A stretch of DNA of 64,000 nt from Kineococcus rhizosphaerae. Lineage in GTDB: Bacteria; Actinomycetota; Actinomycetes; Actinomycetales; Kineococcaceae. The translations under genes were made by a program, and so were the position numbers. Of the stretch, positions 537 through 15,726 are shown one piece after another; the first letter of the stretch is position 1, and the number at the start of each line of letters is the position of its first letter. The stretch is from contig NZ_PVZF01000008.1 in the NCBI RefSeq assembly GCF_003002055.1, positions 62,001-126,000 on the forward strand, read 5' to 3'. Below the pieces are notes generated by a model. It had not been told where the DNA came from, made no database searches, and saw only the letters and a list, made by a program, of their open reading frames with translations.

Positions 537-1493
537 TCAGAGCCCCAGGCGGTGCTTCGCGCACCAGCCGTTGAGCATGACGCTCGAGGCCGGGTTCGGG
601 GTCTGCTCGCTCTCGAACACCACCCAGCCGTCGTACCCGGCGCCGCGCGCGGCGTCCAGGACCGCGGGGGCGTCGACCAGTCCGTCGCGGGTGCCGACCT
701 CGAAGAACCACCGTTCGACCTCGCGGTCGCCGCCGGCGGTGAGGAAGGCGTGCTCGGCGTGCGGGCGCAGCCGTTCGCCGGCGGTGTCGACGTACCGGGT
801 GTCCTTCAGCTGCAGGTGGTCCAGCCGCGCCGCGTGCCGGTGGACGACCGCGACCGGGTCCAGCCCGGCCAGGGTGAGTTCGCCGGTGTCGACGGTCAGG
901 CCGACCACGGCCGGATCGGTCGCGGCCAGCAGCCGGTCCAGCACCTCGTCGTCGGCGGCGGCCGACAAGACGTCGGCGTGCAGGCTGACGCGGACCCCGT
1001 GCCCGGCGGTCATCGCGCCCAGCGCGTCGAAGCACTCCGCGGCGGTCGCGATCGCCGCGTCGTCCACGGCCCCGACTTGCCAGGCCGCGGGCAGGGCCCG
1101 CACCACCAGGCGCGACCCGCCGAGTTCGGCCAGGGCGGCGGCGAAGGGGCGGGCCCACTCCACGATCGCGGCGTGCTGGCCGCGCTCGAGCACCGAGCGG
1201 CCGTGCGAGAGTTCTTCGTCGACGGGTTCGCCCGGGTCCACGGCCCAACTGCTCACCGCGGTCAGGCCCACGTCGGTGAGGAGCTTGCCGAACGTGGCCA
1301 GGGAACCGTAGGTGGCCTCAATCGAGGAGGGCCGGCCCAGCGGGTCCCACCGCCCCGTGCCCCCGCGCAGCTCCACGCCGGTGAAACCGGCCGCGACGAC
1401 CGTCTTGAACGCGCGCAGGTGCGCGTCGGGCCGGCAGAAGTCGTCGAAGTTCGGCTTCCACTGGTTGAGCGCGTACGAACGGCGGATGCTCAC
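537..1493 (-). CDS. Sugar phosphate isomerase/epimerase-type TIM barrel (IolE-like), paralogue of the upstream gene
   Basis: About 318 residues forming an AP-endonuclease-2/xylose-isomerase-like TIM barrel. Likely metal and substrate positions are visible in SLHADVL, GLTVDTGELTLAG, DHLQLKDTRYVD and the C-terminal VFESEQ. The LKDxR plus later EVGTRDGLVD pattern resembles inosose dehydratase (IolE) relatives, which act on keto-cyclitols. The GTG start at 1493 forms a GTGA overlap with the stop of the upstream paralogue and has GGAAGGTGG just upstream, so translation is coupled. It is the last gene of the minus-strand arm of the glycoside island. An isomerase, epimerase or dehydratase acting on a 3-keto-sugar is an inference from context; the substrate cannot be read from sequence. 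Confidence 0.85.
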   Translation of the reverse strand: MSIRRSYALNQWKPNFDDFCRPDAHLRAFKTVVAAGFTGVELRGGTGRWDPLGRPSSIEATYGSLATFGKLLTDVGLTAVSSWAVDPGEPVDEELSHGRSVLERGQHAAIVEWARPFAAALAELGGSRLVVRALPAAWQVGAVDDAAIATAAECFDALGAMTAGHGVRVSLHADVLSAAADDEVLDRLLAATDPAVVGLTVDTGELTLAGLDPVAVVHRHAARLDHLQLKDTRYVDTAGERLRPHAEHAFLTAGGDREVERWFFEVGTRDGLVDAPAVLDAARGAGYDGWVVFESEQTPNPASSVMLNGWCAKHRLGL

Positions 1494-2425
1494 GACGCCA
1501 CCTTCCCCAGGACCTGCTTCGCGTACCACATGGACAGCGCGGTGCTCTCGGCGTAGTCGCCGCCGATGTTGGCCTTGTCGTGCTCGACGGTGACCCAGCC
1601 GTCGTAGCCGTGGGCGTCCATCGCCCGCACCAGGCGCTGGAAGTCGACCAGGCCGCCCTCGGTGCCCATCTCGTGGAACCAGCGGTCGGTCTGCGGCGCC
1701 ATGAGCTCGGCGTCGGGACGGTGCTGGTAGGCGCCCGTGGTGTCCTGCTCACGGGTGTCCTTGAAGTGGAACCCGCTCACCCGGTCGTGCAGCCTCTCGT
1801 ACAGCTCCACCGGGTCGACCCCGGCGATGCAGTGCTGCGCGGTGTCGCAGAAGAAGCTCACGTAGCGCGGGTCGGTCAGCTCGTAGAACCGCACGATGTC
1901 CTCGAACGTGCGGATCGCGCAGAAGAACTCGTGGTGCCCGGTGGTGCGGACGCCGAACTCGGTGAGGGACATCTCGCCGACCCGCGTCCAGCACTCCGCC
2001 GCCGCGGCGATCTTGTCGTCGGTGACCGGCGCGGTCGAGGTGTACAGGCTGGCCGGCATGACGATGAGGTTCTCGATCTGCAGGTCCGACCACATCCCGA
2101 GCATCCGGCGGGTGCTCTCGACGATCTCGTCGTGGGTGGCCCGCACGTGCGCGTCGGCGACTCGGGGGTCGTACATGATGCCCCGGAACAGGTTCACGAT
2201 CTTGGTGATGCCGTGGTCCTGGAGGTACTCCTGGTACTTCCCGATCGACCCGAACATCCCGCTCAGCCCGTAGACCTGGAAGTCGAACATGTCCAGGCCC
2301 TCGAAACCGACCGCCGCGATCTGCTTCACGAAGTCGTCCATCAGGCGGCGGTTGGCGTACTGCGTCTGCGGTCCGCGCGGGGTGTCCACGCGCCAGTGGT
2401 CCATGTAGGCCCAGCGGTAGGTCAC
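1490..2425 (-). CDS. Sugar phosphate isomerase/epimerase-type TIM barrel (IolE-like)
   Basis: About 311 residues of the same superfamily as the following gene. Recognisable strands include IENLIVMPAS, TGHHEFFCAI, SFFCDTAQHC, GFHFKDTREQD, EMGTEGGLVDF and TVEHDKANIGG; E, D, H and E at these strand ends are the usual divalent-metal ligands. It shares the FKDTR/GTxxGLVD signature with its neighbour, so the two are probably an old tandem duplication with divergent roles. The GTG start at 2425 overlaps the TGA of the GMC oxidoreductase gene as GTGA. Directly behind a sugar oxidase, a keto-sugar isomerase or dehydratase role is the simplest inference. Nothing in the sequence fixes the substrate. Confidence 0.87.
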   Translation of the reverse strand: MTYRWAYMDHWRVDTPRGPQTQYANRRLMDDFVKQIAAVGFEGLDMFDFQVYGLSGMFGSIGKYQEYLQDHGITKIVNLFRGIMYDPRVADAHVRATHDEIVESTRRMLGMWSDLQIENLIVMPASLYTSTAPVTDDKIAAAAECWTRVGEMSLTEFGVRTTGHHEFFCAIRTFEDIVRFYELTDPRYVSFFCDTAQHCIAGVDPVELYERLHDRVSGFHFKDTREQDTTGAYQHRPDAELMAPQTDRWFHEMGTEGGLVDFQRLVRAMDAHGYDGWVTVEHDKANIGGDYAESTALSMWYAKQVLGKVAS

Positions 2426-3984
2426 GAGCCGTCTCCTCCTTCGGTGCGGGTCGCGAGGTTCTTCGCGACGTGCCGGGCGCCGCCGACGGCGAGCGCCACG
2501 GTGGTCAGGGTGGGGTTGCAGGCGGTCTCGGTGGGGATGAGGCCGTTGCCGGCGACGAACAGGCCGGGGACGCCCCAGACCTCGCCGTTGACGTCGCACA
2601 CGCTGGTGCCGTCGTCGGTGCGGCCCATCCGGGTCGTGCCCTGGTAGTGCAGGGAACTGCCGGCGGGCAGTTCGATCGGGGCGTCGTCGATGGGGCGGCC
2701 CAAGGCCCGGGCCGCCGCCGCGATGGCCGTCTTCGCCGCGGCGAGCCGCTGCGCGTCGACGTCCGTCAGTTCGTAGTGCACACGCGGGGCGGGCATCCCG
2801 TAGTCGTCGGTCGCGGACTCGTCGAACTCGACGCGGTCCTGCGCGCGCACGTCCTTGGCGCAGAACCAGCCCAGGCCCACGTAGGCCCCGGGCCGGTCGG
2901 CGGGCAGGTCGGGCCGCGGCACGGGGGAGGCGTCCATCTGCATGACCTGCCCGTGGAAGGGGTGCCGGTCGTCGTCGAAGGGGACCCAGCTCACGCCGCT
3001 GCTGCCGTCGATCGCGGTGCCGGCGTGCTCGTCCACGGCGTCCCCGGCCAGGACCTCGTCGGGCAGCCGCACGGCCAGCAGGACCTGCGGCTGGTCGTTG
3101 AGGTACCGGCCCAGGGCCGGGGGCCGGACGCCGGAGGCGAACAGCAGTTGCGGGGTGCGCAGGGCGTCGGCGGCCACGACGACGACGCCGGCGGCGACCT
3201 CGGCGGTGCTGCCGTCGCGGCGGTCGCGCACGGCGATCCCGCGCACGGCGCCGTGCTCGTCGCGCAGCACCCGCTCCACCAGCGTCTCGGGGTGCAGCCC
3301 CACGCCGTGCTCCAGGACGTCGCCGAGGACGACGGAGGGGCCCGACCAGTGGGCCCGGGCCGCGCCGGTCCCGTCCACCTCCCGCCGCACGGCCAGGGGC
3401 ATGGGCTGGACGCGGCGGTCGGCCGGGCGGTCGGCGTCCAGCGCCGTCCCCAGCAGTTCGCGGACCTGCCCGGCCAGCGGGGCGCCGGCCAGGGCCCGCG
3501 CGTCCACGCCCAGGAGGCGTTCGGCCTCGTCCAGCAGCTCGTCGAGGTCCTCGACGAAGTCGATGCGCTCGGTGCCGCCGGGGCGCGGGCAGGCGCACGT
3601 CCAGTGCGCGCCCATGCCGCCGACGTTGCTCGACATCGCCCCCACGGGCAGCCCGGTGCCGCCGGCGGCGAAACCGTCGCCGAGCAGGAACGTGCCGGGC
3701 CGGCCGCGCCGGCCGTCGGCGCTGGCCGGCGGCTGGTCGCCGTCGGGGTCGGCGGCCGGGCCCTCCGAGGCGCGCTGGGCCCGGCGGCGGGCCTGCGGGT
3801 CGGCGATGTTCTTCACGTGGTCGCCGGCCGGGTCGGACAGGACGGGCCCGACCTCGAACACCGCCACACGCAGGTGCGGGGCGTTCTCGTGCAGGGTCCG
3901 GGCCCACGCCGCACCGGCCGGTCCGCTGCCGACGACGGCGACGTCCACCGCGTCGGGGTACCGGCTCTCCAGCCGTCCGGTCAC
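2422..3984 (-). CDS. GMC-family FAD-dependent sugar oxidoreductase (pyranose 2-oxidase / C-glycoside 3-oxidase CarA-like)
   Basis: About 520 residues. An N-terminal Rossmann motif GSGPAG lies at residues 19-24. A VGGMGAHWTC motif at about 121-129 matches the pyranose-oxidase loop, and H127 occupies the position of the flavin-linking histidine of fungal pyranose 2-oxidase. The C-terminal LHYQGTTRMG (H446) and CNPTLTT (N490) supply the catalytic His-Asn pair. Characterised actinobacterial relatives include CarA-type enzymes that oxidise the C3 hydroxyl of C-glycosides; the presence of CarB/CarC-like genes in the same island supports that reading. A plain pyranose oxidase or dehydrogenase remains possible. 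No signal peptide is seen, so it is cytoplasmic. The GTG start overlaps the GH3 stop (GTGA). Confidence 0.88.
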   Translation of the reverse strand: MTGRLESRYPDAVDVAVVGSGPAGAAWARTLHENAPHLRVAVFEVGPVLSDPAGDHVKNIADPQARRRAQRASEGPAADPDGDQPPASADGRRGRPGTFLLGDGFAAGGTGLPVGAMSSNVGGMGAHWTCACPRPGGTERIDFVEDLDELLDEAERLLGVDARALAGAPLAGQVRELLGTALDADRPADRRVQPMPLAVRREVDGTGAARAHWSGPSVVLGDVLEHGVGLHPETLVERVLRDEHGAVRGIAVRDRRDGSTAEVAAGVVVVAADALRTPQLLFASGVRPPALGRYLNDQPQVLLAVRLPDEVLAGDAVDEHAGTAIDGSSGVSWVPFDDDRHPFHGQVMQMDASPVPRPDLPADRPGAYVGLGWFCAKDVRAQDRVEFDESATDDYGMPAPRVHYELTDVDAQRLAAAKTAIAAAARALGRPIDDAPIELPAGSSLHYQGTTRMGRTDDGTSVCDVNGEVWGVPGLFVAGNGLIPTETACNPTLTTVALAVGGARHVAKNLATRTEGGDGS

Positions 3985-6377
3985 CGTTCGACCTCCCTCT
4001 CCACCGCGTTCGGGTCCGTCGCCGAGCGGGCGACGGTGAGCACGTGCGTCCCGGCCGGGACGGTCCAGGTCCCGGCGGCGGTGTCCCATCGACGGAACGC
4101 ACTGCGGGGCAGGCGGATCGTAGCCTCCACGGTCGATCCCGCCGGGGCCTGGACGCGGGCGAAACCCACCAGTCGCGTCCGGTCCTCGCCCGGGGCGCGG
4201 CCGTAGACCTGGACGACGTCGCTCCCGGGGCGCTCCCCGGTGTTCTCGACCTCGGCGTGCACCAGCACGTCGTCGCCGTCCACCGCGGTCCGGACGGCGC
4301 CGAGCCGCCACGTCGTGTACCCCAGGCCGTGCCCGAAGGGGTACGCCGGCACCGGCCCGCCGGCCTGGAAGTGCGCCGGGCCCGCGGGTTCGATCCGGCG
4401 GTAGTCGAGCACGAGGTCGTCGTCCAGACCCACCCCGTACCCGGGGTAGTCGGCGTCGGAACGGGCGAACGTCAGGGGCAGCCGCCCGCCGGGTTCGCGG
4501 TCGCCGTGCAGCACCTCGGCCAGCGCGGGCCCGAACTCCTCCCCGGCGTACCAGGGGACCAGGACGGCCCCGACGTCACCGGCCCACGACGTGTCGACCT
4601 GGTGCCCGGCGTCGAGGACCACGACGGTGCGCGGGTTGGCGGCCGCGACGGCGCGCAGCAGGGCGAGCTGACCCTCGGGCAGGTGGGTCGTGGTGCGGTC
4701 GGCGCTCTCGCGGGAGGCGTTGCGGTCGTCGCCCAGGACGAGGACCACGTCGTCGGCGCGGCGCGCGAGCTCGACCGCCTCGTCGAGCAGGTGCGGGGGC
4801 GCAGGGGGCCGGTGCCCGAGCGTGACGGACTGCACCCGGCCGGGGACGAGGTCGACGTCTGCGACGACGGTGATCGTCCGTCCCGCGACGAGGTCGACGT
4901 CCACGGCCACCGTGTCGGCGCGCGCGACGACGCCCATGACGTCCGCGGGGTCGGGTGCGGCCCAGGTCGCGACCGGTTCGCCGTCGACGGTGAGCACTGC
5001 GTTCCCCGTCCCGCCGACGAGCAGTTCGTGGCGCCCGTCCTGGGAGGCCGTGAACCGGGTGGTCAGCCGGACGCGACCGCCGACGGACGGGCCGCCGATG
5101 CCGGGGATCTCCCCGAACCACACGAAGGTCGAGGTGGGCCGGGTCTCGGTGGCGCCAGGGGTCTCGGCCCCGGGGGCGAAACCCTCCAGCACGACCTCGG
5201 CGAAGGGCTGCAACCCCGTCGGGGCGCTGCCCGGGGCCACGAGGACCTCGGCGCCGGGGAAGGCCGCGACGAGGGCCTGCGCCGGGGTGGTCGGCGGGGT
5301 GGCCGGGGTGACCTTGGCGAAGGTGCCGCCCTGCAGGCAGGGCACGACGGCGTTCGGGCCCAGGACGGCCAGCGTGCGGCCCGGCCCGGTGCGCAGCGGC
5401 AGCAGGCCGCCGTCGTCGTGCAGCAGGACGGTGCCCGCGGCGGCCGCGGCGCGCAGCAGTTCGACGCGCCCGGCCGCGCTCAGGGGAGCCGGGGCATGGG
5501 GAGCGGGGAACCCCGCGCGCCGGCCCACCCGTTCGGCGAGCCGCACGACCCGCTCGGCGGCGTCGGTGAGCCGGGCGTCGTCGACGTCACCGGCGCGCAC
5601 GGCCGCGGCCAGCGCGGGGCCGAAGAACCGCGGGCCGCCGGGCATCTCCAGGTCCAGCCCGGCGCGCGCGGAGGCGACGGTGTCGCGGGTGGCGAACCAG
5701 TCCGAGACGGTGACCCCGTCGAAACCCCACTCCTCCTTCAGGACGCGCAGCAGGGCGGAGTTCTCGCAGCAGTGCTCCCCGCGCACCCGGTTGTAGGCGG
5801 TGAGCACGCTCCACGCCCCGGCCCCGACGGCGGCCTCGAACGGCGCGAGGTAGACCTCGCGCAGCTCGGTCTCGTCGACGGCGACGTCCATGGCCTGCCG
5901 GCGCGTCTCGGTGTCGTTGGCGACGAGGTGCTTGGCGCACGCGCCGACCCCGTGCTCCTGCAGACCCCGGATCCACGCCGCCCCGAGGACGGACGTCAGG
6001 TGCGGGTCCTCGGAGAACATCTCGAAGCTGCGCCCCGAGAACGGGGTGCGCGGCAGGTTGAGGTTCGGGCCGAGGACGACGTCGACACCCTCGGCGCGGG
6101 CCTCGGCCCCGAGCAGCCCGCCCACGCGGTGCACGAGGTCGGGGTCCCAGCTGGCGGCCAGCGAGGTGCCCGAGGGCAGCAGGGTGGCGGTGTCGCGCTC
6201 GTCCATGGTGCGGCTGACGAGCCCGAGGGGGCCGTCGAGGAGGGTGAGTTCGCCGACGCCGGCCTCGGGCAGTCCGTGCGCGGTCCAGCCGTTGACCCCG
6301 GCGGTCGCCGCGGCGCGGGCTTCGACGGGCAGAGCGGCGACCGGCACGTCCGTCTCGCGCCCGAGGTCGACCGTCAC
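3981..6377 (-). CDS. Glycoside hydrolase family 3 beta-glucosidase with PA14 insert
   Basis: About 798 residues. The GH3 N-terminal barrel runs to about residue 300, with ACAKHLV (KH at 149-150) and GVTVSDWFA, where D226 is the expected nucleophile. The GH3 C-terminal alpha/beta sandwich follows, interrupted by a PA14-like beta domain around residues 400-540 (STFVWFGEIP ... ASQDGRHELLVGG), and a fibronectin-III-like domain closes the protein (VEVENTGERPGSDVVQVY). No signal peptide, so hydrolysis is intracellular after import. PA14 inserts in GH3 enzymes restrict the active site toward short or aryl glucosides. The GTG start at 6377 overlaps the stop of the LLM gene, tying O-deglycosylation to the same operon as the sugar oxidase. 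Confidence 0.93.
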   Translation of the reverse strand: MTVDLGRETDVPVAALPVEARAAATAGVNGWTAHGLPEAGVGELTLLDGPLGLVSRTMDERDTATLLPSGTSLAASWDPDLVHRVGGLLGAEARAEGVDVVLGPNLNLPRTPFSGRSFEMFSEDPHLTSVLGAAWIRGLQEHGVGACAKHLVANDTETRRQAMDVAVDETELREVYLAPFEAAVGAGAWSVLTAYNRVRGEHCCENSALLRVLKEEWGFDGVTVSDWFATRDTVASARAGLDLEMPGGPRFFGPALAAAVRAGDVDDARLTDAAERVVRLAERVGRRAGFPAPHAPAPLSAAGRVELLRAAAAAGTVLLHDDGGLLPLRTGPGRTLAVLGPNAVVPCLQGGTFAKVTPATPPTTPAQALVAAFPGAEVLVAPGSAPTGLQPFAEVVLEGFAPGAETPGATETRPTSTFVWFGEIPGIGGPSVGGRVRLTTRFTASQDGRHELLVGGTGNAVLTVDGEPVATWAAPDPADVMGVVARADTVAVDVDLVAGRTITVVADVDLVPGRVQSVTLGHRPPAPPHLLDEAVELARRADDVVLVLGDDRNASRESADRTTTHLPEGQLALLRAVAAANPRTVVVLDAGHQVDTSWAGDVGAVLVPWYAGEEFGPALAEVLHGDREPGGRLPLTFARSDADYPGYGVGLDDDLVLDYRRIEPAGPAHFQAGGPVPAYPFGHGLGYTTWRLGAVRTAVDGDDVLVHAEVENTGERPGSDVVQVYGRAPGEDRTRLVGFARVQAPAGSTVEATIRLPRSAFRRWDTAAGTWTVPAGTHVLTVARSATDPNAVEREVER

Positions 6378-7480
6378 TTGCTGGTCCGGAAGTTCGGCAT
6401 GACGCGCTCGGCGAACAGGCGCAGCGACTGGTCGGTGGCCCGGCGGCGCTCGGGGGTCAGTGGACCGCCCATGAAACCGCCCAGGAGGTTCCCCACGCCG
6501 AGGTCGGCGTACTCCTTGAGCTTGGCGGTGACCGTCTCGGGGGACCCGTGCAGGCACCAGACGCGCTTCCACTCCGGGGTCGTCCCGTCGGTGGGTTCCT
6601 TGAGGTCGACGCCGCTGATGGCCTCGGCCTTCTTGTTCGCGACGAACTCGCGCTCGACGGTGCGCTGGTACTGCCCGAGCAGCACGTCGAGCTCGGCCTC
6701 GGCCTGCTCGTCGGTCTCGGCGAGGTGGACGTACTGGTAGCTGTGGGTGGTCCAGTCCAGGGCGTGGTCGACGACGGCCTGCGGGTGGTCCTGCGCCTCC
6801 AGAGCGGTCCGGTAGCGCTGGTAGGACTCCGCGAACACCTCGAACGGGTTCTCCGGGGTCATCTGCTGCGGGGGCAGGAAGTTCAGGATGAACGCGGGCT
6901 GGCCGAGGCGCGCGGCGCGTTCGGTGCTGGAGGGGCGGGCCGCGACGGGCATCATCGTCGGCGTGCGGTTCCCGTACGGCGCCGGGCTGATGCGGCTGAC
7001 GACGGCGCCCGAGTAGTGCGAGGTGGAGAACTGGACGGGCTCGTCCTCGGGCTTCTTGGCGAGGAGCCGGCCGACGATCTCGAGGTTCTCCTGCGACAGC
7101 CGGGAGGTGTCCTGGAAGTTCACGCCGAACCCGATGGACTCCTCCGGGGTGGTGCCCGACCCCACGCCCACGAGGAGCTTGCCGTCGGTGAGCTGGTCGA
7201 GCAGGGCCAGGCGCTCGGCGAACCGCACCGGGTGGTGCAGCGGGACGGTCTGCACGGAGAACCCGTACCAGAGCTCGGGGTGCCGGGCCGCGAGGTAGGC
7301 CGCGAACACGAACGGGTCGCTGGCCTGGGGGGCGTACCCGGTGAAGTGGTGGTCAGGCTGGAACACCGCGTCGAACCCGAGGGAGGCCCCGACGTCGACG
7401 TGCTCGACGAGGGCGTCCATCACGGCGCGGTCCTCCGACGGGGCGGTGGAACGGGTCGTCAGGAACAGGGAGAAACGCAT
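6374..7480 (-). CDS. LLM-class flavin-dependent monooxygenase
   Basis: A 368-residue bacterial-luciferase-like TIM barrel starting at ATG 7480 (MRFSLFLTTRS). Family hallmarks are FDAVFQPDHHFTGY near residue 40, YGFSVQTVPLHHPVRFAERLALLDQLTDGKLLVGVGSG around 90-130, and a C-terminal SPETVTAKLKEYADLGVGNLLG. These enzymes use reduced FMN and O2 delivered by a separate reductase, and the gene directly upstream encodes one (27-bp gap). The pair therefore looks like a two-component oxygenase. Placed beside a sugar oxidase and C-deglycosidase genes, oxygenation of the released aglycone is a reasonable inference. It is a different subgroup from the sfnG product at 15818. Confidence 0.9.
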   Translation of the reverse strand: MRFSLFLTTRSTAPSEDRAVMDALVEHVDVGASLGFDAVFQPDHHFTGYAPQASDPFVFAAYLAARHPELWYGFSVQTVPLHHPVRFAERLALLDQLTDGKLLVGVGSGTTPEESIGFGVNFQDTSRLSQENLEIVGRLLAKKPEDEPVQFSTSHYSGAVVSRISPAPYGNRTPTMMPVAARPSSTERAARLGQPAFILNFLPPQQMTPENPFEVFAESYQRYRTALEAQDHPQAVVDHALDWTTHSYQYVHLAETDEQAEAELDVLLGQYQRTVEREFVANKKAEAISGVDLKEPTDGTTPEWKRVWCLHGSPETVTAKLKEYADLGVGNLLGGFMGGPLTPERRRATDQSLRLFAERVMPNFRTSK

Positions 7481-7507
7481 CGTGGCCTCCGGGGGTGGCG
7501 AGGGGGA

Positions 7508-8056
7508 TCAGAGCGGGGTGGGCGCGCCGTACGCGCCGCGGGAGAAGACGAGGGACTGCGCGACGTCGGGGTTCGCGCCCAGGGCCAGGACCCGGGCCAG
7601 GACGATGTCGTGGTCCCCTGCGGCGAGGACGTCGTGGATCTCGCAGTCCACCCAGGCGGCGGCGCCGGCGACGACGTGGCCCCCGGCACCGGTGCGGTGC
7701 CAGGCGAACCGTTCGAAGCGGTCCTCCTCCTTGCGGGCGAAGGCGCGGCAGACGTCGACCTGCCCGTGGCCCAGGACGCTGGCGGTGAAGCGGCCGTGAG
7801 CGCGCAGGAGGGGCCAGGTCGTGGAGGCGCGGTCGGGCATGAAGGCGACCAGGGGCGGGTCGAGGGAGACCGAGCCGAAGGTCCCCACCACCATGGCCGC
7901 CGTGGGGCGCGCGGCCGCCGCGTCCGCGGGGCCGGAGGTGACGAGCGTGACGCCCGTCGGCACGTGCCCGAGGACGGTGCGGTAGCTGCGGGGGTCGTGC
8001 GCGTCCTCCACCACCAGCGGGGCGGTCGGCGGGGGAGCGGTCGTGGGCTGGGGCAT
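7508..8056 (-). CDS. Flavin reductase-like (FMN-binding split-barrel) protein, monooxygenase partner
   Basis: About 182 residues of the flavin reductase/HpaC-type fold: LGHVPTGVTLVTS, the loop FGSVSLDPPLVAFMPDRAST, RFTASVLGHGQ and a C-terminal HDIVLARVLALG. It supplies reduced FMN to the LLM monooxygenase encoded next. ATG 8056 is chosen over upstream starts because GGAAGG sits 7 nt before it and because the upstream in-frame sequence runs through the operator and promoter. It is the first gene of the minus-strand arm, transcribed from the promoter at 8124-8152, immediately next to a divergent tetR gene. Confidence 0.9.
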   Translation of the reverse strand: MPQPTTAPPPTAPLVVEDAHDPRSYRTVLGHVPTGVTLVTSGPADAAAARPTAAMVVGTFGSVSLDPPLVAFMPDRASTTWPLLRAHGRFTASVLGHGQVDVCRAFARKEEDRFERFAWHRTGAGGHVVAGAAAWVDCEIHDVLAAGDHDIVLARVLALGANPDVAQSLVFSRGAYGAPTPL

Positions 8057-8105
8057 CACGGGGCCTTCCGGTGGGCGACGGTGCCAGGACCGAGCAGGAG
8101 TCGAA

Positions 8106-8123
8106 TCAGAATCCGCGTTCTGA
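8106..8123. promoter_or_regulatory. Candidate TetR operator overlapping the start of the minus-strand operon
   Basis: A perfect inverted repeat TCAGAA-N6-TTCTGA lies immediately downstream of the minus-strand -10 box and within the 170-bp gap shared with the divergent tetR gene. Its 18-bp size and position over the transcription start fit a TetR-family repressor site; assigning it to the adjacent regulator is an inference. Confidence 0.6.
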
Positions 8124-8152
8124 ACAGTAGGTCGGAGTTCGGCCCCGGTCAA
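8124..8152 (-). promoter_or_regulatory. Sigma70-type promoter of the flavin reductase-LLM-GH3-GMC operon
   Basis: On the minus strand TTGACC (8152-8147) is followed after exactly 17 nt by TACTGT (8129-8124). Transcription would start near 8117, inside the inverted repeat, giving a leader of about 60 nt to the ATG at 8056. Confidence 0.6.
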
Positions 8153-8212
8153 GCTCCGGGACCGGGTTCCGGCCGAACCCCCGTCCCGGGTTCCCCGGAC
8201 CCCGCGCTCGGC

Positions 8213-8218
8213 TAGGTT
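8213..8218 (+). promoter_or_regulatory. Leaderless -10 box of tetR
   Basis: TAGGTT ends 8 nt before the GTG start at 8227, the spacing expected when transcription begins at the start codon. No Shine-Dalgarno sequence is present. Confidence 0.5.
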
Positions 8219-8226
8219 CACTTCCC

Positions 8227-8913
8227 GTGCCGGAACCGAGAACCCCGCTGCCCGCCCCCGCCCGTGCGCAGGACGACCTCCCCGCGGTGCGAGAACCCCT
8301 GCAGGCCCGCAGCAAGGAATCGTTTGCGCGGGTCCAGGACGCGGCCCTGTCGCTGCTGCGCGAACGGGGCGACGACTCCTTCACCCTGGCCGAGGTCAGC
8401 GAACGCTCCGGGGTCTCCACGGGCAGCATCTACGGCCGGGTGCGCGGCAAGGACGCCCTGCTGCGCCTCGTCCACGAGCGCGAGCTGGAGCGGATCGACG
8501 CCGAGACCCTCACGGCCTTCGCGGCGGCCGCCACCGGGCAGGACACGCTCACGGGCAGCGTCCGCGCCCTCGTCACCGCCCTCGCCCGGATGCTGCAGGC
8601 CGAGGCCGGGGTCCTGCGCCCGTTCATGCTGCGCGCCGTCCACGACCCGGAGGTGGCCCGCCTGGGCCGGCACTACTCCGACCGGGAGATCGCGGTGTTC
8701 TGCGACGCGCTGCTGCGCCACCGCGCGCAGATCCGCCGTGCGGACCCCGAGACCGCGGTCGCGTGGTGCCACACCGTCGTCTACAGCGTCATCGCCCGCC
8801 GGCTCGGCCTGGGCAGCACCGCCGAGGGCGCCAGCGGTCCCGAGGTCGACGTCATGGTCGACCGGCTGTCCTCGATGGTGTCGTCCTACCTGCTCACCCC
8901 CGACGCGGACTGA
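8227..8913 (+). CDS. TetR/AcrR family transcriptional regulator of the glycoside island
   Basis: About 228 residues. An N-terminal TetR helix-turn-helix is visible at about 35-80 (VQDAALSLLRERGDDSFTLAEVSERSGVSTGSIYGRV), followed by an all-helical ligand domain that does not identify the effector. The GTG start at 8227 lies 8 nt after TAGGTT, so the mRNA is probably leaderless. It diverges from the flavin reductase operon, with the inverted repeat at 8106-8123 between them, and is followed by the transporter and C-deglycosidase genes on its own strand. The likely inducer is the glycoside, its aglycone or a keto-sugar intermediate (inference). Confidence 0.88.
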   Translation: MPEPRTPLPAPARAQDDLPAVREPLQARSKESFARVQDAALSLLRERGDDSFTLAEVSERSGVSTGSIYGRVRGKDALLRLVHERELERIDAETLTAFAAAATGQDTLTGSVRALVTALARMLQAEAGVLRPFMLRAVHDPEVARLGRHYSDREIAVFCDALLRHRAQIRRADPETAVAWCHTVVYSVIARRLGLGSTAEGASGPEVDVMVDRLSSMVSSYLLTPDAD

Positions 8914-8939
8914 CCGTCCCCGGGCTCGGCCGGAAGGGT

Positions 8940-8969
8940 GGCATCGACGACGTCGATGGTCGCGATGCC
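8940..8969. promoter_or_regulatory. Nested inverted repeats upstream of the sugar transporter gene
   Basis: CATCGAC-GAC-GTCGATG (8942-8958) is a 17-bp palindrome lying inside a wider repeat GGCATCG (8940-8946) / CGATGCC (8963-8969). It falls in the 129-bp gap between tetR and the transporter. It could be a second operator or an RNA hairpin attenuating readthrough; no clear -35/-10 pair was found nearby. Confidence 0.4.
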
Positions 8970-9042
8970 GGATGGCGATTTCCGTCCCGGCCCCCGCTTC
9001 CCCCACTCTGAGCGCAGCACCCTGCGCGAAGGAGCGGAGAGC

Positions 9043-10422
9043 ATGACCCACCTGTCGGTGCGGAGCGTCGAGGCCCCGCCCACCCCCCGTGAACGCCTGC
9101 GGCGCCGGGAGAAGCTCGCCTACGGCGCCGGTGACCTCGCCTCGAACCTCTCGTGGAACTTCGTCGGCTCGTTCCTGCTCTTCTACTACACCGACGTCGC
9201 CGGGGTCCCGATCGCCCTGCTGGGCACGCTGTTCCTCGTGGCCCGCCTGCTCGACGCCGTCGTCGACCCCTTCGTCGGCGTGCTCGTCGACCGGACCCGC
9301 ACGCGGTTCGGCCGGGCCCGGCCCTACCTGCTGTTCGCCGCCGTGCCCTTCGGGGTCCTGGGGGTGCTCACGTTCGCCGTCCCCGACGTCGGGGACACCG
9401 GCAAGCTCGTCTACGCCTTCGTCACGTACCTGACGCTGGGGATCCTCTTCTCGACGGTGAACGTCCCCTACAGCGCGCTGATGCCGATGATGACCCGCGA
9501 CCGCGAGGAGCGGATGCAGCTGGGTGCGCTGCGCAGCGTCGGCTCCTCCGTCGGCACGATCGTCGTCACCGCGGCCACCACCCCCCTCGTCGCGGCCCTC
9601 GGCGGCGGCCAGCACGGGTGGACGGTCGCCACCGTCCTCTACAGCGCCCTCAGCGTCGTCTTCTTCGCCCTCACCTTCGCCGGCTGCCGGGAACGGCACG
9701 CCGTCGTCGAGCCGGTCGTGGCGGACGTGCGGGCCGACCTGCGCGCGAGCCTGCGGGGCCTGCTGCGCAACCGTGCGTGGGTCGTCACGTCCGTCTACGG
9801 GGTGCTGAACTTCGTGCGTTTGGGGCTGGTCCTGGCCGTCACGGTCTACTACGCCCTCGTCGTGCTCCAGCGGCCGGCGGCCATCTCCGTCCTGCTCCCT
9901 CTGGTCTCCGGTGCGATGCTCGTCGGCGGCCTGCTCGCGCCGCGGTACTACCGCCGGTTCGGCATCCGCCGCGGGAACCTGCTCGCCCTCGCCGTCGGCG
10001 GCGCCGGGTGGGCGGCGCTGAGCCTGGTGGAGTACCGGTTCGGGCTGTTCGTCGCGGTGTACGCCGTGGCGACGCTGGCCATCGGGCTGTCCATGACCTC
10101 GATGTTCACGATGGTCGCCGAGGCCGTCGAGCACCAGGAGCAGGGCACGGGGCGCCGTGACGAGGGGCTGGTCTCGGCCAGCGTCAGCTTCGCCGTCAAG
10201 GTGGGTTCGGCGCTGGGTGCCGCCGCCGTCGCCTACGCCCTCGCCGGCGCCGGGTACGACCCCGCCGTCCACGGGTCGGCCGCCGGGACGATCGGCGCGC
10301 TCTACCTCCACGTCCCGCTCGTCCTCGTCGCCGCGCAGGCCGTCGTCGTGCTCCTGTGGTCCGACGCGCCGGCCGCCACCCACCCGTCCCGCCCCCACCA
10401 GTCCCCGGAGGACGCACGATGA
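9043..10422 (+). CDS. GPH-family (MFS superfamily) sugar:cation symporter
   Basis: About 459 residues with twelve hydrophobic segments. GPH hallmarks are YGAGDLASNLSWNFVGSFLL at the first helix, ARLLDAVVDPFVGVLVDRTRTRFGRARPYLL at the helix 2-3 loop and NVPYSALMPMMT near the fourth helix. Such proteins import sugars or glycosides with H+ or Na+. ATG 9043 is chosen because AAGGAG lies 8 nt upstream and the protein then begins just before the conserved GDL motif; an upstream ATG at 8938 would add an unlikely N-terminus through the inverted repeats. Its stop overlaps the carB-like start (ATGA), so uptake and C-deglycosylation are translationally coupled. Confidence 0.9.
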   Translation: MTHLSVRSVEAPPTPRERLRRREKLAYGAGDLASNLSWNFVGSFLLFYYTDVAGVPIALLGTLFLVARLLDAVVDPFVGVLVDRTRTRFGRARPYLLFAAVPFGVLGVLTFAVPDVGDTGKLVYAFVTYLTLGILFSTVNVPYSALMPMMTRDREERMQLGALRSVGSSVGTIVVTAATTPLVAALGGGQHGWTVATVLYSALSVVFFALTFAGCRERHAVVEPVVADVRADLRASLRGLLRNRAWVVTSVYGVLNFVRLGLVLAVTVYYALVVLQRPAAISVLLPLVSGAMLVGGLLAPRYYRRFGIRRGNLLALAVGGAGWAALSLVEYRFGLFVAVYAVATLAIGLSMTSMFTMVAEAVEHQEQGTGRRDEGLVSASVSFAVKVGSALGAAAVAYALAGAGYDPAVHGSAAGTIGALYLHVPLVLVAAQAVVVLLWSDAPAATHPSRPHQSPEDAR

Positions 10423-11408
10423 GCCACCGCATCACCCGCGGGGTGAGCCTGTACAGCTTCCAGGAGGAGTTCTTCCTGCGGACCATGACGGTGCGCGACG
10501 CCGTCGCGGTCGCCGCGAAGATCGGCGCCCTGGACATCGAGATCATCCCCGAGCAGTCGATCCCCGGCTTCCCGCGCGTCAGCGACGAGTGGGTCCGGGA
10601 CTGGCACGACACCATGGCCGAGTTCGGCACCCGGCCGCTGGCCTACGACTTCTTCCTCGACACCCTGCGCCACCCCGGCCGCCGGCTCACCCACGACGAG
10701 CAGGTCGCCTCGGTGCGCCGCGACGTCGACCTCGCCGTCCGCCTCGGCACGACGAAGCTGCGCGCGATCATCAGCACCCCGGCGGAGGTCCTGCGCGACG
10801 CGGCCCCGTACGCCGAGGAGGCCGGGGTCCAGCTGCTGCTGGAGGTGCACGCCCCCTTCCACTACGCCCACCCGTGGGTGCTGCGGCACCTGGAGGTCAT
10901 GGACGCCCTCGACAGCCCCGCGCTGGGGTTCATGCCCGACCTCGGGTGCTTCGTCGAGCGGTTCCCCCGCGTGGCCTCCGAACGCGCGCTGCGCGAGGGC
11001 GCCCGGCCCGAGGTCGTCGACCTGGTCGTGAAGACCTACGACGACCACGGCGACGTCCACGGCCTGATGGACACCGTGAACTACCTGGGGGGCGGGCCCG
11101 TCGAGATCGGCCTGGCCCGGCAGGCGACCCACTACACCTGGCGCGACCCGCGGATGCTGCTGGAGCAGATCCACCGTACCCACCACGTCCAGGCCAAGTT
11201 CTACGAGATGACCGACGAGGGGACGGAGTACTCCATCCCCTACGACCGCATCGTCGACGTCCTCGTCGAGGGCGGTTTCTCCGGGTGCCTGTCCAGCGAG
11301 TACGAGGGCAACCGGCACATCCAGGACGTCCACCCGGTCGACTCGGTGGACCAGGTCACCCGCCACCACGCCATGCTCGAGCGCCTCCTGGCCCGGCACG
11401 AGAACTGA
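10419..11408 (+). CDS. carB: C-glycoside deglycosidase alpha subunit-like TIM barrel (CarB/DgpB family)
   Basis: About 329 residues of the sugar phosphate isomerase/epimerase superfamily. It differs from the other barrels here by RGVSLYSFQEEFF at the N-terminus, LEVHAPFHYAHPW (E142, H144), GFMPDLGCFVERF (D174), HHVQAKFYEM (H255/H256) and LSSEYEGNRH (E294). E142, D174, a histidine and E294 suit a divalent metal site, and H144 the general base described for DgpB/CarB enzymes. In that family the alpha subunit joins a small beta protein to cleave the C-C bond of a 3-keto-C-glycoside by beta-elimination. The beta-type gene is next (9-bp gap), which strongly supports the call. ATG 10419 overlaps the transporter stop, with GGAGG 8 nt upstream. 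Confidence 0.85.
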   Translation: MSHRITRGVSLYSFQEEFFLRTMTVRDAVAVAAKIGALDIEIIPEQSIPGFPRVSDEWVRDWHDTMAEFGTRPLAYDFFLDTLRHPGRRLTHDEQVASVRRDVDLAVRLGTTKLRAIISTPAEVLRDAAPYAEEAGVQLLLEVHAPFHYAHPWVLRHLEVMDALDSPALGFMPDLGCFVERFPRVASERALREGARPEVVDLVVKTYDDHGDVHGLMDTVNYLGGGPVEIGLARQATHYTWRDPRMLLEQIHRTHHVQAKFYEMTDEGTEYSIPYDRIVDVLVEGGFSGCLSSEYEGNRHIQDVHPVDSVDQVTRHHAMLERLLARHEN

Positions 11409-11417
11409 GGAGACGAC

Positions 11418-11810
11418 GTGTTCGAGAAGTACGTCATCGTCCCCGGCACCCTGCGCAACGTCGTGGAGTCCGGGCGCACCACCGGGTTCGAGCTCGGGGT
11501 CCGGATGCCCTACTACCGCGGTCTGGGTCTGTCCATGGTCGAGGACGTGGCGCTCACCGTCGACGGTGTCCGCGCCGCCCCGGAGGGGACCACGTTCACG
11601 GTGCACGGCAACAGCTACCCGCTGACCGGCCTGGGCGAGGTCGTCGACGACCGCTGGGAACTGGGCGAGGTCGCGACCGTGCGCGTCGACCACCCCGGCG
11701 GCCTCGCCCCCGGCGTGCACGACGTCGAGGTCAGCCAGCGCCTGCGCATCTCGTACATGCCCGTCCCGGGCGGCGGCCGGGCCCGCGCCGCCGTGGAACT
11801 GTCCGCCTGA
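11418..11810 (+). CDS. carC: C-glycoside deglycosidase beta subunit (CarC/DgpC, DUF6379)
   Basis: A 130-residue all-beta protein beginning MFEKYVIVPGTLRNV. It contains GFELGVRMPYYRGLGLSMVEDVALTVDG and a late YMPVPGG, characteristic of the DUF6379/C-deglycosidase beta family. It has no catalytic function alone; in characterised CarBC or DgpBC complexes it packs against the TIM barrel and completes the active site. The GTG start has GAGGAG overlapping the carB-like stop, giving coupled, near-stoichiometric synthesis. Presence of this small dedicated partner separates a true C-deglycosidase system from a generic isomerase gene. Confidence 0.86.
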   Translation: MFEKYVIVPGTLRNVVESGRTTGFELGVRMPYYRGLGLSMVEDVALTVDGVRAAPEGTTFTVHGNSYPLTGLGEVVDDRWELGEVATVRVDHPGGLAPGVHDVEVSQRLRISYMPVPGGGRARAAVELSA

Positions 11811-11836
11811 ACCCCCACCCGTTGCAGGAGAACCCC

Positions 11837-12652
11837 GTGACCCACCGACTCGCACCGAACGTCGAACTGCTCTTCACCGAGCACGGCGACTACCCCGACC
11901 GGGTCCGCGCCGCCGCGGCGGCCGGTTTCACCTCCGTGGAGATGTGGGGCCCCACCGGCAAGGACGCCCCCGCCAAGCCCAAGGACCTGCCGGCCCTGAA
12001 GGCGGCCCTGCAGGAGACCGGCGTCCGGCTGGAGGCCCAGCTGGCCGAACCGCGGACCCAGTTCATGATCCCGCCGAAGGACCACGGCGACTTCTACCGG
12101 GGCATCGAGGAGGGCGCCCGCATCGCGGCCGACCTGGGCTGCCCCCGCATCGTGGTGCAGGGCGGCACCGGGTTCGGCGGCCGCAAGCGCCAGGACCAGC
12201 ACGACGAGCTCGCCGGGATCTACACCCGCGCCCTGGAACTGATCGAGGGTTCGGGGGTCGTCCTGGTCCTGGAGGCCGTGAACACCCGCGTCGACCACCC
12301 CGGCACCCTGCTGGACCGCACCACCGACGCCATCGACGTCGCCCGCACCGTCGGCTCCCCGCAGTTCGGGGTCCTGGTGGACGTCTACCACTCCCGCGTG
12401 ATGTCCGAGGACCTCGTCCAGGTCCTCGCCGAGGCCGGCCCGCTCGTGCGGTACGTGCAGGTCGCCGACGTCCCCGGCCGGGGGGAACCCGGCACGGGGA
12501 CGATCGACTGGCCGGGCGTCTTCCGGGCGCTGACCGCGGCCGGGTACGACGGCCCGGTCGGGCTGGAGTACGTCCCGACCGTGGACTCCGAGGAGTCCAC
12601 CCGCCACCTACGCTCGGTCCTGGAGGACCTGGGGGCCCTCGCCCGCGGCTGA
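11837..12652 (+). CDS. Hydroxypyruvate isomerase-like sugar isomerase (Hyi/OtnI family)
   Basis: About 271 residues with the Hyi signature order: EMWGPTGKD, RIVVQGGTG, LVLEAVNTRVDHPG (E in strand 5), VLVDVYHSRVM, VQVADVPGRGEPGTG and GLEYVPT (final metal Glu). Family members interconvert small 2-keto and aldehyde sugars such as hydroxypyruvate/tartronate semialdehyde or 2-oxo-tetronates. The GTG start at 11837 has CAGGAG 6 nt upstream. As the last gene of the plus-strand arm it probably handles a sugar-derived product of C-glycoside cleavage. It is the fourth sugar-isomerase barrel in the island and the one most clearly assignable to a named family. Confidence 0.86.
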   Translation: MTHRLAPNVELLFTEHGDYPDRVRAAAAAGFTSVEMWGPTGKDAPAKPKDLPALKAALQETGVRLEAQLAEPRTQFMIPPKDHGDFYRGIEEGARIAADLGCPRIVVQGGTGFGGRKRQDQHDELAGIYTRALELIEGSGVVLVLEAVNTRVDHPGTLLDRTTDAIDVARTVGSPQFGVLVDVYHSRVMSEDLVQVLAEAGPLVRYVQVADVPGRGEPGTGTIDWPGVFRALTAAGYDGPVGLEYVPTVDSEESTRHLRSVLEDLGALARG

Positions 12653-12656: not shown

Positions 12657-13565
12657 TCAGTGGGCGGACAGCGGCAGCAGGACGTCCTTCACGTCGGGGT
12701 TCGTCGCCAGGTACTCCTGCACCCTGGGGTCCTGGAAGGTCTCGACGAGCTTGACGACGTTCTCGCTGTCCTTCCACCGCGACCCGATGGTCAGCTGGCC
12801 GGCGAACTCGTCGGGCGCGGTCGGGGCGAAGATCTGCTGCTCGATCGGGATCTTCGCCGCGAGGTAGTACTCGGTGTACCCGACGGCCGCGTCCAGGTCG
12901 GGCAGGGCGCGGGACTGGGCGCCGAAGTCGAGCAGCGTGAACTTCAGGTCCTTCGGGTTCGTGGCGATGTCGTCCACCGTGGCGGAGCCGACGTCGGTAC
13001 CGGGCTTCAGCGTGATGAGCCCGGCCTTCTGCAGGACGAACAGGCCCTGCGACTCGTTGGCCGGGTCCGAGTAGAGCGAGACCGTCCCGCCGTCCGGGAT
13101 CTCCTGCGGCGTCTTCCACTTCGACGACCACAGACCGAAACCCCACCGGAACACCGGCGTCGCCGCCTCCTCGCGGAAGTCCGGGTTCGCCTGCAGCACC
13201 TGCCCCAGCCAGAGCTCGTGCTGGTAGATCGTGCCCGCGACCTCGCCGTCGCTGACGGCGCGGTTGATGGTGTTGGAGTCGGCCAGGGCCTTGAACGCGA
13301 CCGTGATGCCGTGCGCGGGAGCCACGTCCTTCGCGATGTACTCGATGAGCGCCTGCTCGCGGGCGTTCCCCTCGGCCGTGGCGACGTACAGCGTCGCCCC
13401 GGCCCGGGTGTTCGCGGTCTGCTCGCCACCGAGGCGGGGGACGACCAGGGCGGCGGCGACGCCGAGGACGACGACGGCACCGCCGGCGACGAACGGCCAG
13501 AGCCTGCGCCGGCGGACCTCGAACCCGTGGTCGTCGGTGGGGGTCGGGCGGGTTTCAGTGGACAA
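12657..13565 (-). CDS. metQ: MetQ/NlpA-family methionine-binding protein with membrane anchor
   Basis: About 302 residues. The ligand domain has the NlpA pattern: TLYVATAEGNAREQALIEYIAKDVAPAHGITVAFKAL, DGEVAGTIYQHELWL, IPDGGTVSLYSDPANESQGLFVLQKAGLI and VGYTEYYLAAKI. It captures methionine (possibly D-Met or derivatives) for the adjacent MetNI. Start TTG 13565 is chosen because AGGAG lies 7 nt upstream and it overlaps the permease end by 11 nt; longer starts would be translated through permease sequence. Unlike ordinary MetQ there is no lipobox cysteine: a cytoplasmic RRRR run is followed by one transmembrane helix at about residues 23-42, so it is tethered as a type-II membrane protein. Confidence 0.87.
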   Translation of the reverse strand: MSTETRPTPTDDHGFEVRRRRLWPFVAGGAVVVLGVAAALVVPRLGGEQTANTRAGATLYVATAEGNAREQALIEYIAKDVAPAHGITVAFKALADSNTINRAVSDGEVAGTIYQHELWLGQVLQANPDFREEAATPVFRWGFGLWSSKWKTPQEIPDGGTVSLYSDPANESQGLFVLQKAGLITLKPGTDVGSATVDDIATNPKDLKFTLLDFGAQSRALPDLDAAVGYTEYYLAAKIPIEQQIFAPTAPDEFAGQLTIGSRWKDSENVVKLVETFQDPRVQEYLATNPDVKDVLLPLSAH

Positions 13566-14331
13566 GGGTCTTCTCCTGGACGGTGTCGCGGGGGGCGGTG
13601 CGGGTGCGCGCCGGACGGCGGCGGGTGCGGGGGTCGGCGGCGCGGGCGACGGCGTCACCCACGAGCTGGACGGTCGCGACGAGCGCGACGAGGACGACGA
13701 TCGTGGCGAGCATGACGGCGTGGTCGAAGCGCTGGTACCCGTAGGTGACCGCGACGTACCCGATGCCGCCGGCGCCGATGGTCCCGGCGATGGCCGAGTA
13801 CTCGATCATCGCGATCGTGTTGATGGTCAGGCCGCCGATGATCGACGGCGCCGCCTCGGACAGCTGCACGGTCGTGATGACCTGCAGCGGGGAGGCGCCC
13901 GACGCCTGGGCGACCGCCACGAGGTTCGGCGGCACCGAGCGCAGCGAGTTCTCCACGATGCGGCTGAAGAACGCGGTCCCCGCCAGGACCATCGGCACGA
14001 CGGCGGCACGGATCCCGATGTTCGTCCCGGTGACGAAGCGGGTGAACGGCACGAGCGCGGCCATGAGGACGAGGAACGGCAGCGACCGGCCGGTGCTGAC
14101 GACCCAGCTGAGCACCGTGTGCGCGGCGCGGTTCTCCAGCAGTCCACCGGGGGCGAGGTTGTGCACGAGGACGCCGATCGGGACCCCGAGCAGCACGACG
14201 ACCGCCATGACGATCCCCACCATGAGCAGGGTGTCGACGAGCGCGGGGGCGATCAGCGCCGGGATCCGGTCCAGCGGGGTGTCGAGGCTCGAGGCGGCCG
14301 CGAACGTCGAGGGCAGGGCGAGGGGGATCAC
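13555..14331 (-). CDS. metI: Methionine ABC transporter permease
   Basis: About 258 residues with five predicted transmembrane segments and a BPD-transport loop (QASGASPLQVITTVQLSEAAPSIIGGLT) that contacts the ATPase. The MetI-type start DTLLMVGIVMAVVVLLGVPIGVLVHNL and the central STGRSLPFLVLMAAL are typical. GTG 14331 overlaps the metN stop as GTGA. It sits in a metN-metI-metQ operon whose leader carries a SAM-IV riboswitch, matching a methionine importer. Confidence 0.9.
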   Translation of the reverse strand: MIPLALPSTFAAASSLDTPLDRIPALIAPALVDTLLMVGIVMAVVVLLGVPIGVLVHNLAPGGLLENRAAHTVLSWVVSTGRSLPFLVLMAALVPFTRFVTGTNIGIRAAVVPMVLAGTAFFSRIVENSLRSVPPNLVAVAQASGASPLQVITTVQLSEAAPSIIGGLTINTIAMIEYSAIAGTIGAGGIGYVAVTYGYQRFDHAVMLATIVVLVALVATVQLVGDAVARAADPRTRRRPARTRTAPRDTVQEKTLVH

Positions 14332-15332: not shown

Positions 15333-15385
15333 GTCGTCCTCCGGGGCGGCGTCCGGGTGGTGGGGGCACGGGCGTGCGGCAGCGA

Positions 15386-15401
15386 CCGGGCGACGGCCCG
15401 G
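15386..15401 (-). other. GC hairpin between the SAM-IV aptamer and metN
   Basis: On the minus strand CCGGGC-CGTC-GCCCGG can form a tight six-pair stem about 55 nt before the metN start. There is no U-tract, but actinobacterial terminators often lack one; it may belong to the expression platform. Confidence 0.35.
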
Positions 15402-15483
15402 CTGCGGAGATTTCAGGGGAGGTTCAGGGAACGCTCAGCGCGAGCGTCGACAGGCCTTCGGCACACCGGTCTCCGGGTCTCGT

Positions 15484-15586: not shown

Positions 15587-15593
15587 TGGGCTG

Positions 15594-15623: not shown

Positions 15624-15639
15624 GCGGTTCGGGTGTTCG

Positions 15640-15664: not shown

Positions 15665-15726
15665 AGACTGAGTACCGAAAAGAGGGGCCGCGGTGGCCGT
15701 CCGGGACGGGGTACGCTGCGGCGATC

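What the first reader, a model, noticed from the sequence alone, without database searches (positions are those of the whole stretch)
537..12652. A bidirectional C-glycoside catabolic island with its own two-component flavin monooxygenase
In one 12-kb block lie a CarA/pyranose-oxidase-like enzyme, a CarB-like and CarC-like (DUF6379) pair, three further sugar-isomerase barrels, a GH3 glucosidase, a GPH symporter, an LLM monooxygenase with its flavin reductase, and a TetR regulator. Known C-glycoside pathways oxidise C3 of the sugar and then cleave the C-C bond with a two-subunit enzyme; both steps are represented here. Adding an oxygenase pair suggests that aglycone breakdown or ring oxygenation is built in, which I do not know from described car/dgp clusters. 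The order of steps is inferred.
Basis: partly seen in the sequence, partly recalled or inferred. Interest (0 to 1): 0.85.

Follow-up and report, generated by a model that had tools for sequence, protein, structure and literature searches.

The report
Plant C-glycoside breakdown regulon with monooxygenase
A bacterium carries a gene set that should split sugars off carbon-linked aromatic plant glycosides, and it and relatives in several genera have wired an oxygen-inserting enzyme pair into the same switch-controlled set, probably to attack the aromatic part as well.

Summary
In detail: 537-12652 carries two divergent arms with all the genes named. The GMC oxidase and the CarB/CarC-like pair match solved C-glycoside oxidases and deglycosidases strongly. 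The open question was whether the LLM monooxygenase and flavin reductase belong. They do: LLM orthologues occur in 12 of 23 selected CarB genomes, each time on CarB's contig; in the window's family LLM and CGDB mark the same 3 of 12 genomes; in an Amycolatopsis set all 6 LLM genomes are among the 7 of 19 with CGDB. GH3 follows LLM in 17 of 17 clusters. A palindrome between the arms (8106-8123) recurs upstream of cluster genes in 15 of 17 LLM clusters, so the arms appear to share a regulon. The LLM's substrate is inferred: most likely the aromatic aglycone. Against full aglycone degradation here, the two dioxygenase orthologues tested were not found in this genome. One CGD metal ligand (His) is Gln throughout this clade. 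New variant of a known kind.

The parts
537..1493 (-). IolE-like TIM barrel 1 (sugar isomerase/dehydratase fold), probably acts on the released keto-sugar
   Evidence: Pfam AP_endonuc_2; myo_inos_iolE below its cut-off; PDB 3cny
1490..2425 (-). IolE-like TIM barrel 2; up to 81% identical in Streptomyces RB17
   Evidence: (protein 10, longer frame); conservation
2422..3984 (-). CarA/G3Ox-like GMC oxidase
   Evidence: Pfam GMC_oxred_N and _C; 7qf8 573 bits, 7dve 549 bits; motifs ASPVP, SLHYQG, TACNPT
3981..6377 (-). GH3 beta-glucosidase-like enzyme
   Evidence: best NCBIfam BetGlucosiCelf0468, 540 bits, below its cut-off of 1300
6374..7480 (-). Luciferase-like (LLM) monooxygenase
   Evidence: Pfam Bac_luciferase 2.4e-44; PDB 8cbb, 1brl_A, 7bip
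7508..8059 (-). Flavin reductase of the HsaB/FerA type
   Evidence: Pfam Flavin_Reduct 3.3e-36; best NCBIfam HsaB 135 bits, below its cut-off of 230
8106..8123 (.). Palindrome TCAGAA-N6-TTCTGA, putative operator between the arms
   Evidence: only site with up to one mismatch in the window, chance mean 0.03; recurs upstream of cluster genes in other genera
8227..8913 (+). TetR-family regulator, candidate to bind the palindrome
   Evidence: Pfam TetR_N
9043..10422 (+). GPH-type sugar symporter
   Evidence: Pfam MFS_2 1.3e-80
10419..11408 (+). CarB-like alpha subunit of a C-glycoside deglycosidase, Gln258 variant
11418..11810 (+). CarC-like beta subunit (Pfam CGDB, formerly DUF6379)
   Evidence: PF19906 8.1e-39
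11837..12652 (+). Hydroxypyruvate-isomerase-like TIM barrel
   Evidence: Pfam AP_endonuc_2; OH-pyruv-isom 164 bits, below its cut-off; PDB 3ngf

Best explanation
This is a regulon for using aromatic C-glucosides. Inferred order: the GPH symporter imports the glycoside; GH3 removes any extra O-linked sugar; the CarA-like GMC oxidase oxidises C3 of the C-linked glucose; the CarBC-like pair cleaves the sugar-aglycone C-C bond by metal-assisted elimination; the three barrels turn the released 2-hydroxy-3-keto-glycal into a usable sugar. The flavin reductase feeds reduced FMN to the LLM monooxygenase, which oxygenates the aromatic aglycone (epoxidation, hydroxylation or Baeyer-Villiger insertion beside a ring carbonyl). 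A palindrome at 8106-8123, probably bound by the TetR protein, controls both arms. Shown by computation: gene identities, co-inheritance, and the recurring palindrome. Inferred: substrate, order of steps, LLM reaction, and which regulator binds.
For: Core enzymes. Presence: LLM in 12 of 23 selected CarB genomes, 12 of 12 on CarB's contig at 2.3-33.5 kb; 3 of 12 family genomes have LLM, the same 3 have CGDB; 6 of 19 Amycolatopsis-set genomes have LLM, all among the 7 with CGDB. Position: GH3 follows LLM in 17 of 17 clusters; FRed in the fetched stretch in 15 of 17. Palindrome: 31 sites with up to two mismatches in 488 kb, 24 of them within 300 bp upstream of a cluster-gene homologue, 15 of 17 clusters; 16 LLM-less CarB loci have 2 sites, neither so placed. 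Aromatic substrate: RslO1 among nearest solved LLMs; a 43% relative lies among polyketide tailoring genes; in A. acidicola FRed-LLM-GH3 shares a strand with GMC, CarC, CarB and two ring-cleavage dioxygenases.
Against: No activity is shown. Gln replaces a metal-binding His in the CarB-like subunit. The extradiol and intradiol orthologues of A. acidicola were not found in the window's genome or its two LLM-bearing congeners; the intradiol is also missing in G200 and G212. At least 11 CarB genomes lack the LLM, so it is not needed for deglycosylation. FRed is next to LLM (within 100 bp) in 4 of 17 clusters only and was not found in the two Streptomyces stretches. G210 and G218 lack a palindrome upstream of a cluster gene. 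The constant GH3 neighbour may point to an O-glucoside instead.
Confidence: 0.6

Rival explanations
1. The LLM, reductase and GH3 form a side branch for O-glucosides: GH3 frees an aromatic or aliphatic aglycone and the LLM oxidises it, independent of C-glycoside cleavage but induced by the same plant material.
For: GH3 follows LLM in 17 of 17 clusters, and FRed-LLM-GH3 stands apart from CarB in several genomes, 9-34 kb away.
Against: LLM was not found in CGDB-less genomes of the two sets where both were searched (9 of 9 and 12 of 12 without), and the palindrome is shared with CarB and the barrels.
Confidence: 0.15
2. The cluster mainly serves O-glycosides: the GMC oxidises them at C3 and the CarBC-like Gln-type enzyme acts as an O-glycoside eliminase.
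For: Related oxidases also act on O-glycosides such as phlorizin (PMC11673046 passages; PMC12724307 discussion); Gln replaces a metal ligand; GH3 is present.
Against: The best matches by far of both subunits are C-glycoside deglycosidases; catalytic His and Glu and four of five metal ligands are kept.
Confidence: 0.12
3. The LLM pair is protective: it inactivates a toxic or redox-active aglycone rather than feeding a degradation route.
For: The ring-cleavage dioxygenases tested were not found in the window's genome; sister clusters contain MFS transporters with TRI12 efflux-type Pfam matches (L107, L108, L109).
Against: In A. acidicola the pair lies beside ring-cleavage enzymes on one strand.
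Confidence: 0.08

Closest known systems
CarA/CarBC of Microbacterium (carminate) and PurA/PurBC of Paenarthrobacter No. 37 (puerarin)
   Same: GMC-type C3 oxidase plus two-subunit C-C cleaving enzyme, soil actinobacteria (PMC8563793 passages; PMC12724307 abstract, passages, discussion)
   Different: No LLM or flavin reductase is mentioned in the passages read; the term searches found 'monooxygenase' 0 times in both texts. Here His269 of the alpha subunit is Gln. Supplementary gene maps could not be read.
PsG3Ox cluster of Pseudarthrobacter siccitolerans
   Same: closest solved oxidase; oxidase gene beside two alpha and two beta CGD genes (PMC10646112 passages)
   Different: one alpha/beta pair here, plus LLM, FRed, GH3, GPH and TetR
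8qvc/8qvd/8umc deglycosidase (Deinococcus aerius by recall)
   Same: best solved match of both subunits
   Different: has His where the window protein has Gln258 (alignment)
RslO1/RslO2 of rishirilide biosynthesis
   Same: luciferase-like FMN monooxygenase with separate flavin reductase; 7BIP is among the nearest solved LLMs (PMC8093152 passages)
   Different: biosynthetic, proposed epoxidase; only about 60-67 bits, not an orthologue
Luciferase-like type II Baeyer-Villiger candidate of Sphingobium sp. AntQ-1
   Same: an LLM proposed to open the central ring of anthraquinone in catabolism (PMC9836352 passages)
   Different: no C-glycoside genes described in those passages; sequences not compared here

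Membership tests
C-glycoside 3-oxidase (CarA/G3Ox) | GMC domains and closest match to solved G3Ox/CarA rather than fungal pyranose oxidase | tested here: met
   573 and 549 bits against 95 for the best fungal chain (enzyme names for 7qf8 and 7dve recalled)
C-glycoside 3-oxidase (CarA/G3Ox) | substrate loop ASPVP and catalytic His/Asn (H440, N484 of PsG3Ox) | tested here: met
   alignment, motifs, residue roles from PMC10646112 passages
C-glycoside 3-oxidase (CarA/G3Ox) | oxidises C3 of a C-glycoside | not testable with these tools
   needs an assay
C-glycoside deglycosidase (CGD) | alpha (TIM barrel) and beta (CGDB) subunits, both matching solved CGDs, side by side | tested here: met
C-glycoside deglycosidase (CGD) | catalytic His149 and Glu307 (AgCGD2 numbers) | tested here: met
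   His144 and Glu296 of the window protein
C-glycoside deglycosidase (CGD) | five metal ligands Glu147, Asp179, His269, Lys271, Glu305 | tested here: not met
   four of five kept; His269 is Gln258 here and in 40 of 144 distinct rows, 32 of 32 at 60% identity or more. I therefore claim that it works like a CGD and call it a Gln-type CGD homologue; activity is open.
Two-component LLM monooxygenase | Bac_luciferase domain with a separate flavin reductase | tested here: met
   pairing of the two proteins in vitro not tested
Two-component LLM monooxygenase | luciferase-type His44 (role recalled) | tested here: met
   His44 and His45 invariant in the 5 rows aligned
Type II Baeyer-Villiger monooxygenase | inserts oxygen beside a ketone | not testable with these tools
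   diketocamphane monooxygenase 4uwm is only a weak match, 23-35 bits

The most novel reading that the evidence does not exclude
C-glycoside regulons of this actinobacterial group contain a dedicated two-component luciferase-class monooxygenase that opens or activates the aromatic carbonyl ring system of the aglycone, possibly while the sugar is still attached, so that sugar removal and ring attack form one co-regulated pathway under a single palindromic operator.
Probability: 0.35. Interest if true: 0.8.

Novelty: new variant of a known kind. Interest (0 to 1): 0.6.

Why it matters
What happens to aryl C-glycosides in soil after deglycosylation is little known: PMC8563793 calls for work on the other enzymes of the cluster (passage), and PMC12724307 follows puerarin as far as daidzein. 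A conserved LLM with reductase under a shared palindrome gives a concrete candidate for the next step, a predicted operator to test, and a Gln-type active site to compare with the His-type enzymes.

Tried and rejected
Rejected as part of the set: the second LLM at 15374-16963 is SfnG (586 bits, above its cut-off of 383) near NlpA and ABC genes. Rejected as a specific marker: the extradiol dioxygenase of A. acidicola. At E<=1e-30 it matches 25 of 35 genomes searched, 25 of the 29 outside the window's genus and 0 of 6 inside; most matches lie on other contigs or far from CarB. Not used: the AlphaFold2 model of the LLM, mean pLDDT 65. Led nowhere: the shallow inverted-repeat scan missed the palindrome, which I saw in the alignment.

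Literature: 'DUF6379' is in 0 papers. The listings showed no title or abstract start that joins an LLM or flavin reductase with C-glycoside clusters; the C-glycoside oxidase papers have 'flavin reductase' 0 times. The term 'monooxygenase' is found 0 times in PMC8563793, PMC10807413, PMC10646112, PMC12724307, PMC11673046 and PMC10628242, and once, about lytic polysaccharide enzymes, in PMC9659204. The library lacks most subscription papers; supplements and figures were out of reach.

Limits: the 23 genomes were picked from 80 loci. Left out were L029, L030, L032-L034 and all other phyla, plus some further actinobacterial loci; those loci showed no LLM orthologue, but their genomes were not searched. 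In some searches only 4-6 candidates per genome were scored. Fisher values ignore kinship. The palindrome was first seen in the three congeneric spacers, so those three sites are not independent; the other 28 of 31 were found afterwards. Of the 16 control loci, 11 come from genomes without LLM, and 5 (L029, L030, L032-L034) lack it only within the locus. The genus name Kineococcus is my guess from GC, genome size and kinship; no call names it. The names of organisms behind L loci are record titles.

Full report
What is there. The block 537-12652 holds eleven genes in two divergent arms. The minus arm runs FRed, LLM, GH3, GMC, TIM2, TIM1, with four-base overlaps from LLM on. The plus arm runs TetR, GPH, CarB-like, CarC-like, TIM3. 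The same order stands in two congeners, G078 and G162.

Core enzymes. The GMC protein matches the solved bacterial glycoside oxidases 7qf8 and 7dve (PsG3Ox and MtCarA by recall) with 573 and 549 bits, against 95 bits for the best fungal pyranose oxidase. It keeps the ASPVP loop and the His and Asn motifs. Both CarB-like and CarC-like proteins match the subunits of solved C-glycoside deglycosidases. Of seven mechanistic residues named in PMC8563793 (passages), six are kept; metal ligand His269 is Gln258. Gln is found in 40 of 144 distinct rows and in 32 of 32 rows at least 60% identical to the window protein, so it marks a group and is not a damaged copy. Alanine at this site strongly lowers activity in the studied enzymes; what Gln does is not known. 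TIM1 and TIM2 are IolE-like and TIM3 is hydroxypyruvate-isomerase-like. A role on the eliminated 2-hydroxy-3-keto-glycal is inferred, by analogy with the hydratase proposed in PMC10628242 (passages).

Is the LLM pair part of it? Presence: of 23 selected CarB genomes, 12 have an LLM orthologue at E<=1e-30, one each, 60-66% identical, and 12 of 12 lie on the CarB contig, 2.3 to 33.5 kb away. In the window's family, 3 of 12 genomes have LLM and the same 3 have CGDB. In the Amycolatopsis set, 6 of 19 have LLM and 7 of 19 have CGDB; the 6 are among the 7, and two of them (G615, G618) were met through LLM first and then proved to have CGDB 14.2 and 11.5 kb away with CarB beside it. One-sided Fisher values are 0.0045 and 0.00026, kinship ignored. 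In a phylum sample of 396 only the own genome matches at E<=1e-60, and in 295 Streptomyces one orthologue plus one 43% relative; few candidates per genome were scored there.

Position. GH3 follows LLM on the same strand in 17 of 17 clusters. FRed is in the fetched stretch in 14 of 17 and in Klenkia's next stretch; it is within 100 bp of LLM in 4 of 17, within 2 kb in 4 more and 5-10 kb off in 6. It was not found in the two Streptomyces stretches. The LLM module stands beside CarB clusters of different lay-outs: the window type, the Amycolatopsis/Streptomyces type, an Arthrobacter type whose relatives L029, L030 and L032-L034 show no LLM in the locus, and A. acidicola, whose closest CarB is 47% identical. 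Trees of LLM and CarB agree on the window's congeners, five Amycolatopsis, the two Streptomyces, and Klenkia with its Geodermatophilaceae neighbour, some at modest support; they disagree on A. acidicola, Saccharopolyspora and Thermocatellispora.

Shared palindrome. The spacer between the arms carries TCAGAATCCGCGTTCTGA at 8106-8123, the only site with up to one mismatch in the window (chance mean 0.03). In 488 kb from the 17 LLM clusters there are 7 perfect, 11 one-mismatch and 13 two-mismatch sites; two-base-block shuffles expect about 0.1 with up to one mismatch. Twenty-four of the 31 lie within 300 bp upstream of a homologue of a cluster gene. Fifteen of 17 clusters have at least one such site; G210 and G218 have none. 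In G214 and G618 both LLM and CarB have one; in G212 both FRed and TIM2; in G213 and G615 both LLM and TIM2. Sixteen CarB loci without LLM hold 2 sites with up to two mismatches, neither upstream of a cluster gene. The two arms thus appear to be one regulon in these genomes. That TetR binds the site is inference; no TetR homologue was seen in the G213 stretch.

What does the LLM do? The nearest solved chains are luciferase-alpha types and RslO1. RslO1 with RslO2 is proposed to epoxidise a tricyclic polyketide (PMC8093152 passages). The 43% relative in Streptomyces G634 lies among a SARP-type regulator, FAD_binding_3 oxygenases and a polyketide cyclase. In Sphingobium AntQ-1 an LLM is proposed as a type II Baeyer-Villiger enzyme on anthraquinone (PMC9836352 passages). 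In A. acidicola one strand carries GMC, CarC, CarB (32% identical), a CocE-type hydrolase, an FrsA-like hydrolase, an extradiol and an intradiol dioxygenase, an Fe-alcohol dehydrogenase, FRed, LLM, GH3 and TetR. The same genome has a second, unrelated LLM and a flavin reductase beside another GMC-CarC-CarB set. Together these favour an aromatic substrate, most simply the aglycone. Against: the window's genome and its two LLM-bearing congeners show no extradiol (E<=1e-30) or intradiol (E<=1e-15) orthologue, the intradiol is also missing in G200 and G212, and the constant GH3 neighbour leaves an O-glucoside role open.

Known or new? CarABC and PurABC systems are known (PMC8563793, PMC10646112 passages; PMC12724307 abstract, passages and discussion). 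No LLM or flavin reductase partner was found in the passages and listings named under Tried and rejected. I file it as a new variant of a known kind: the deglycosylation core is familiar, the co-inherited, apparently co-regulated LLM module is the addition.

Noticed in passing
window 10419-11408, residue 258: Metal-ligand His of known C-glycoside deglycosidases is Gln in this actinobacterial group (40 of 144 distinct rows).
   Followed up: partly
L112 5668-19901 with L115 13-1569 (Amycolatopsis acidicola): One-strand run of GMC, CarC, CarB, two hydrolases, extradiol and intradiol dioxygenases, Fe-ADH, FRed, LLM, GH3, TetR: looks like a joined sugar and ring degradation operon.
   Followed up: partly
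L114 6877-12940 (Amycolatopsis acidicola): A second, unrelated LLM and a flavin reductase fused to a GntR-type domain lie beside another GMC-CarC-CarB set.
   Followed up: partly
L048, L049, L065, L066, L071, L075, L092, L112: A VOC-fold extradiol-like protein and an FrsA-like hydrolase occur together in 8 CarB loci, some outside Actinomycetota; several matches are weak, 38-42 bits for the extradiol.
   Followed up: no
L117 7177-7194, L118 1147-1164, L119 16717-16734: A second perfect palindrome, with differing spacers, lies near sugar ABC transporter and LysR-type genes outside the cluster in all three LLM-bearing congeners; L119 is the window's own contig, about 3.3 kb before the window. Gene types read from sequence, not by a family search.
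   Followed up: partly
window 12657-16963: NlpA lipoprotein, ABC ATPase and a dimethylsulfone monooxygenase SfnG-like gene: probably a separate sulfur locus.
   Followed up: no
L128 9492-10661 (Streptomyces G634): The 43% relative of the LLM sits among polyketide tailoring genes.
   Followed up: partly
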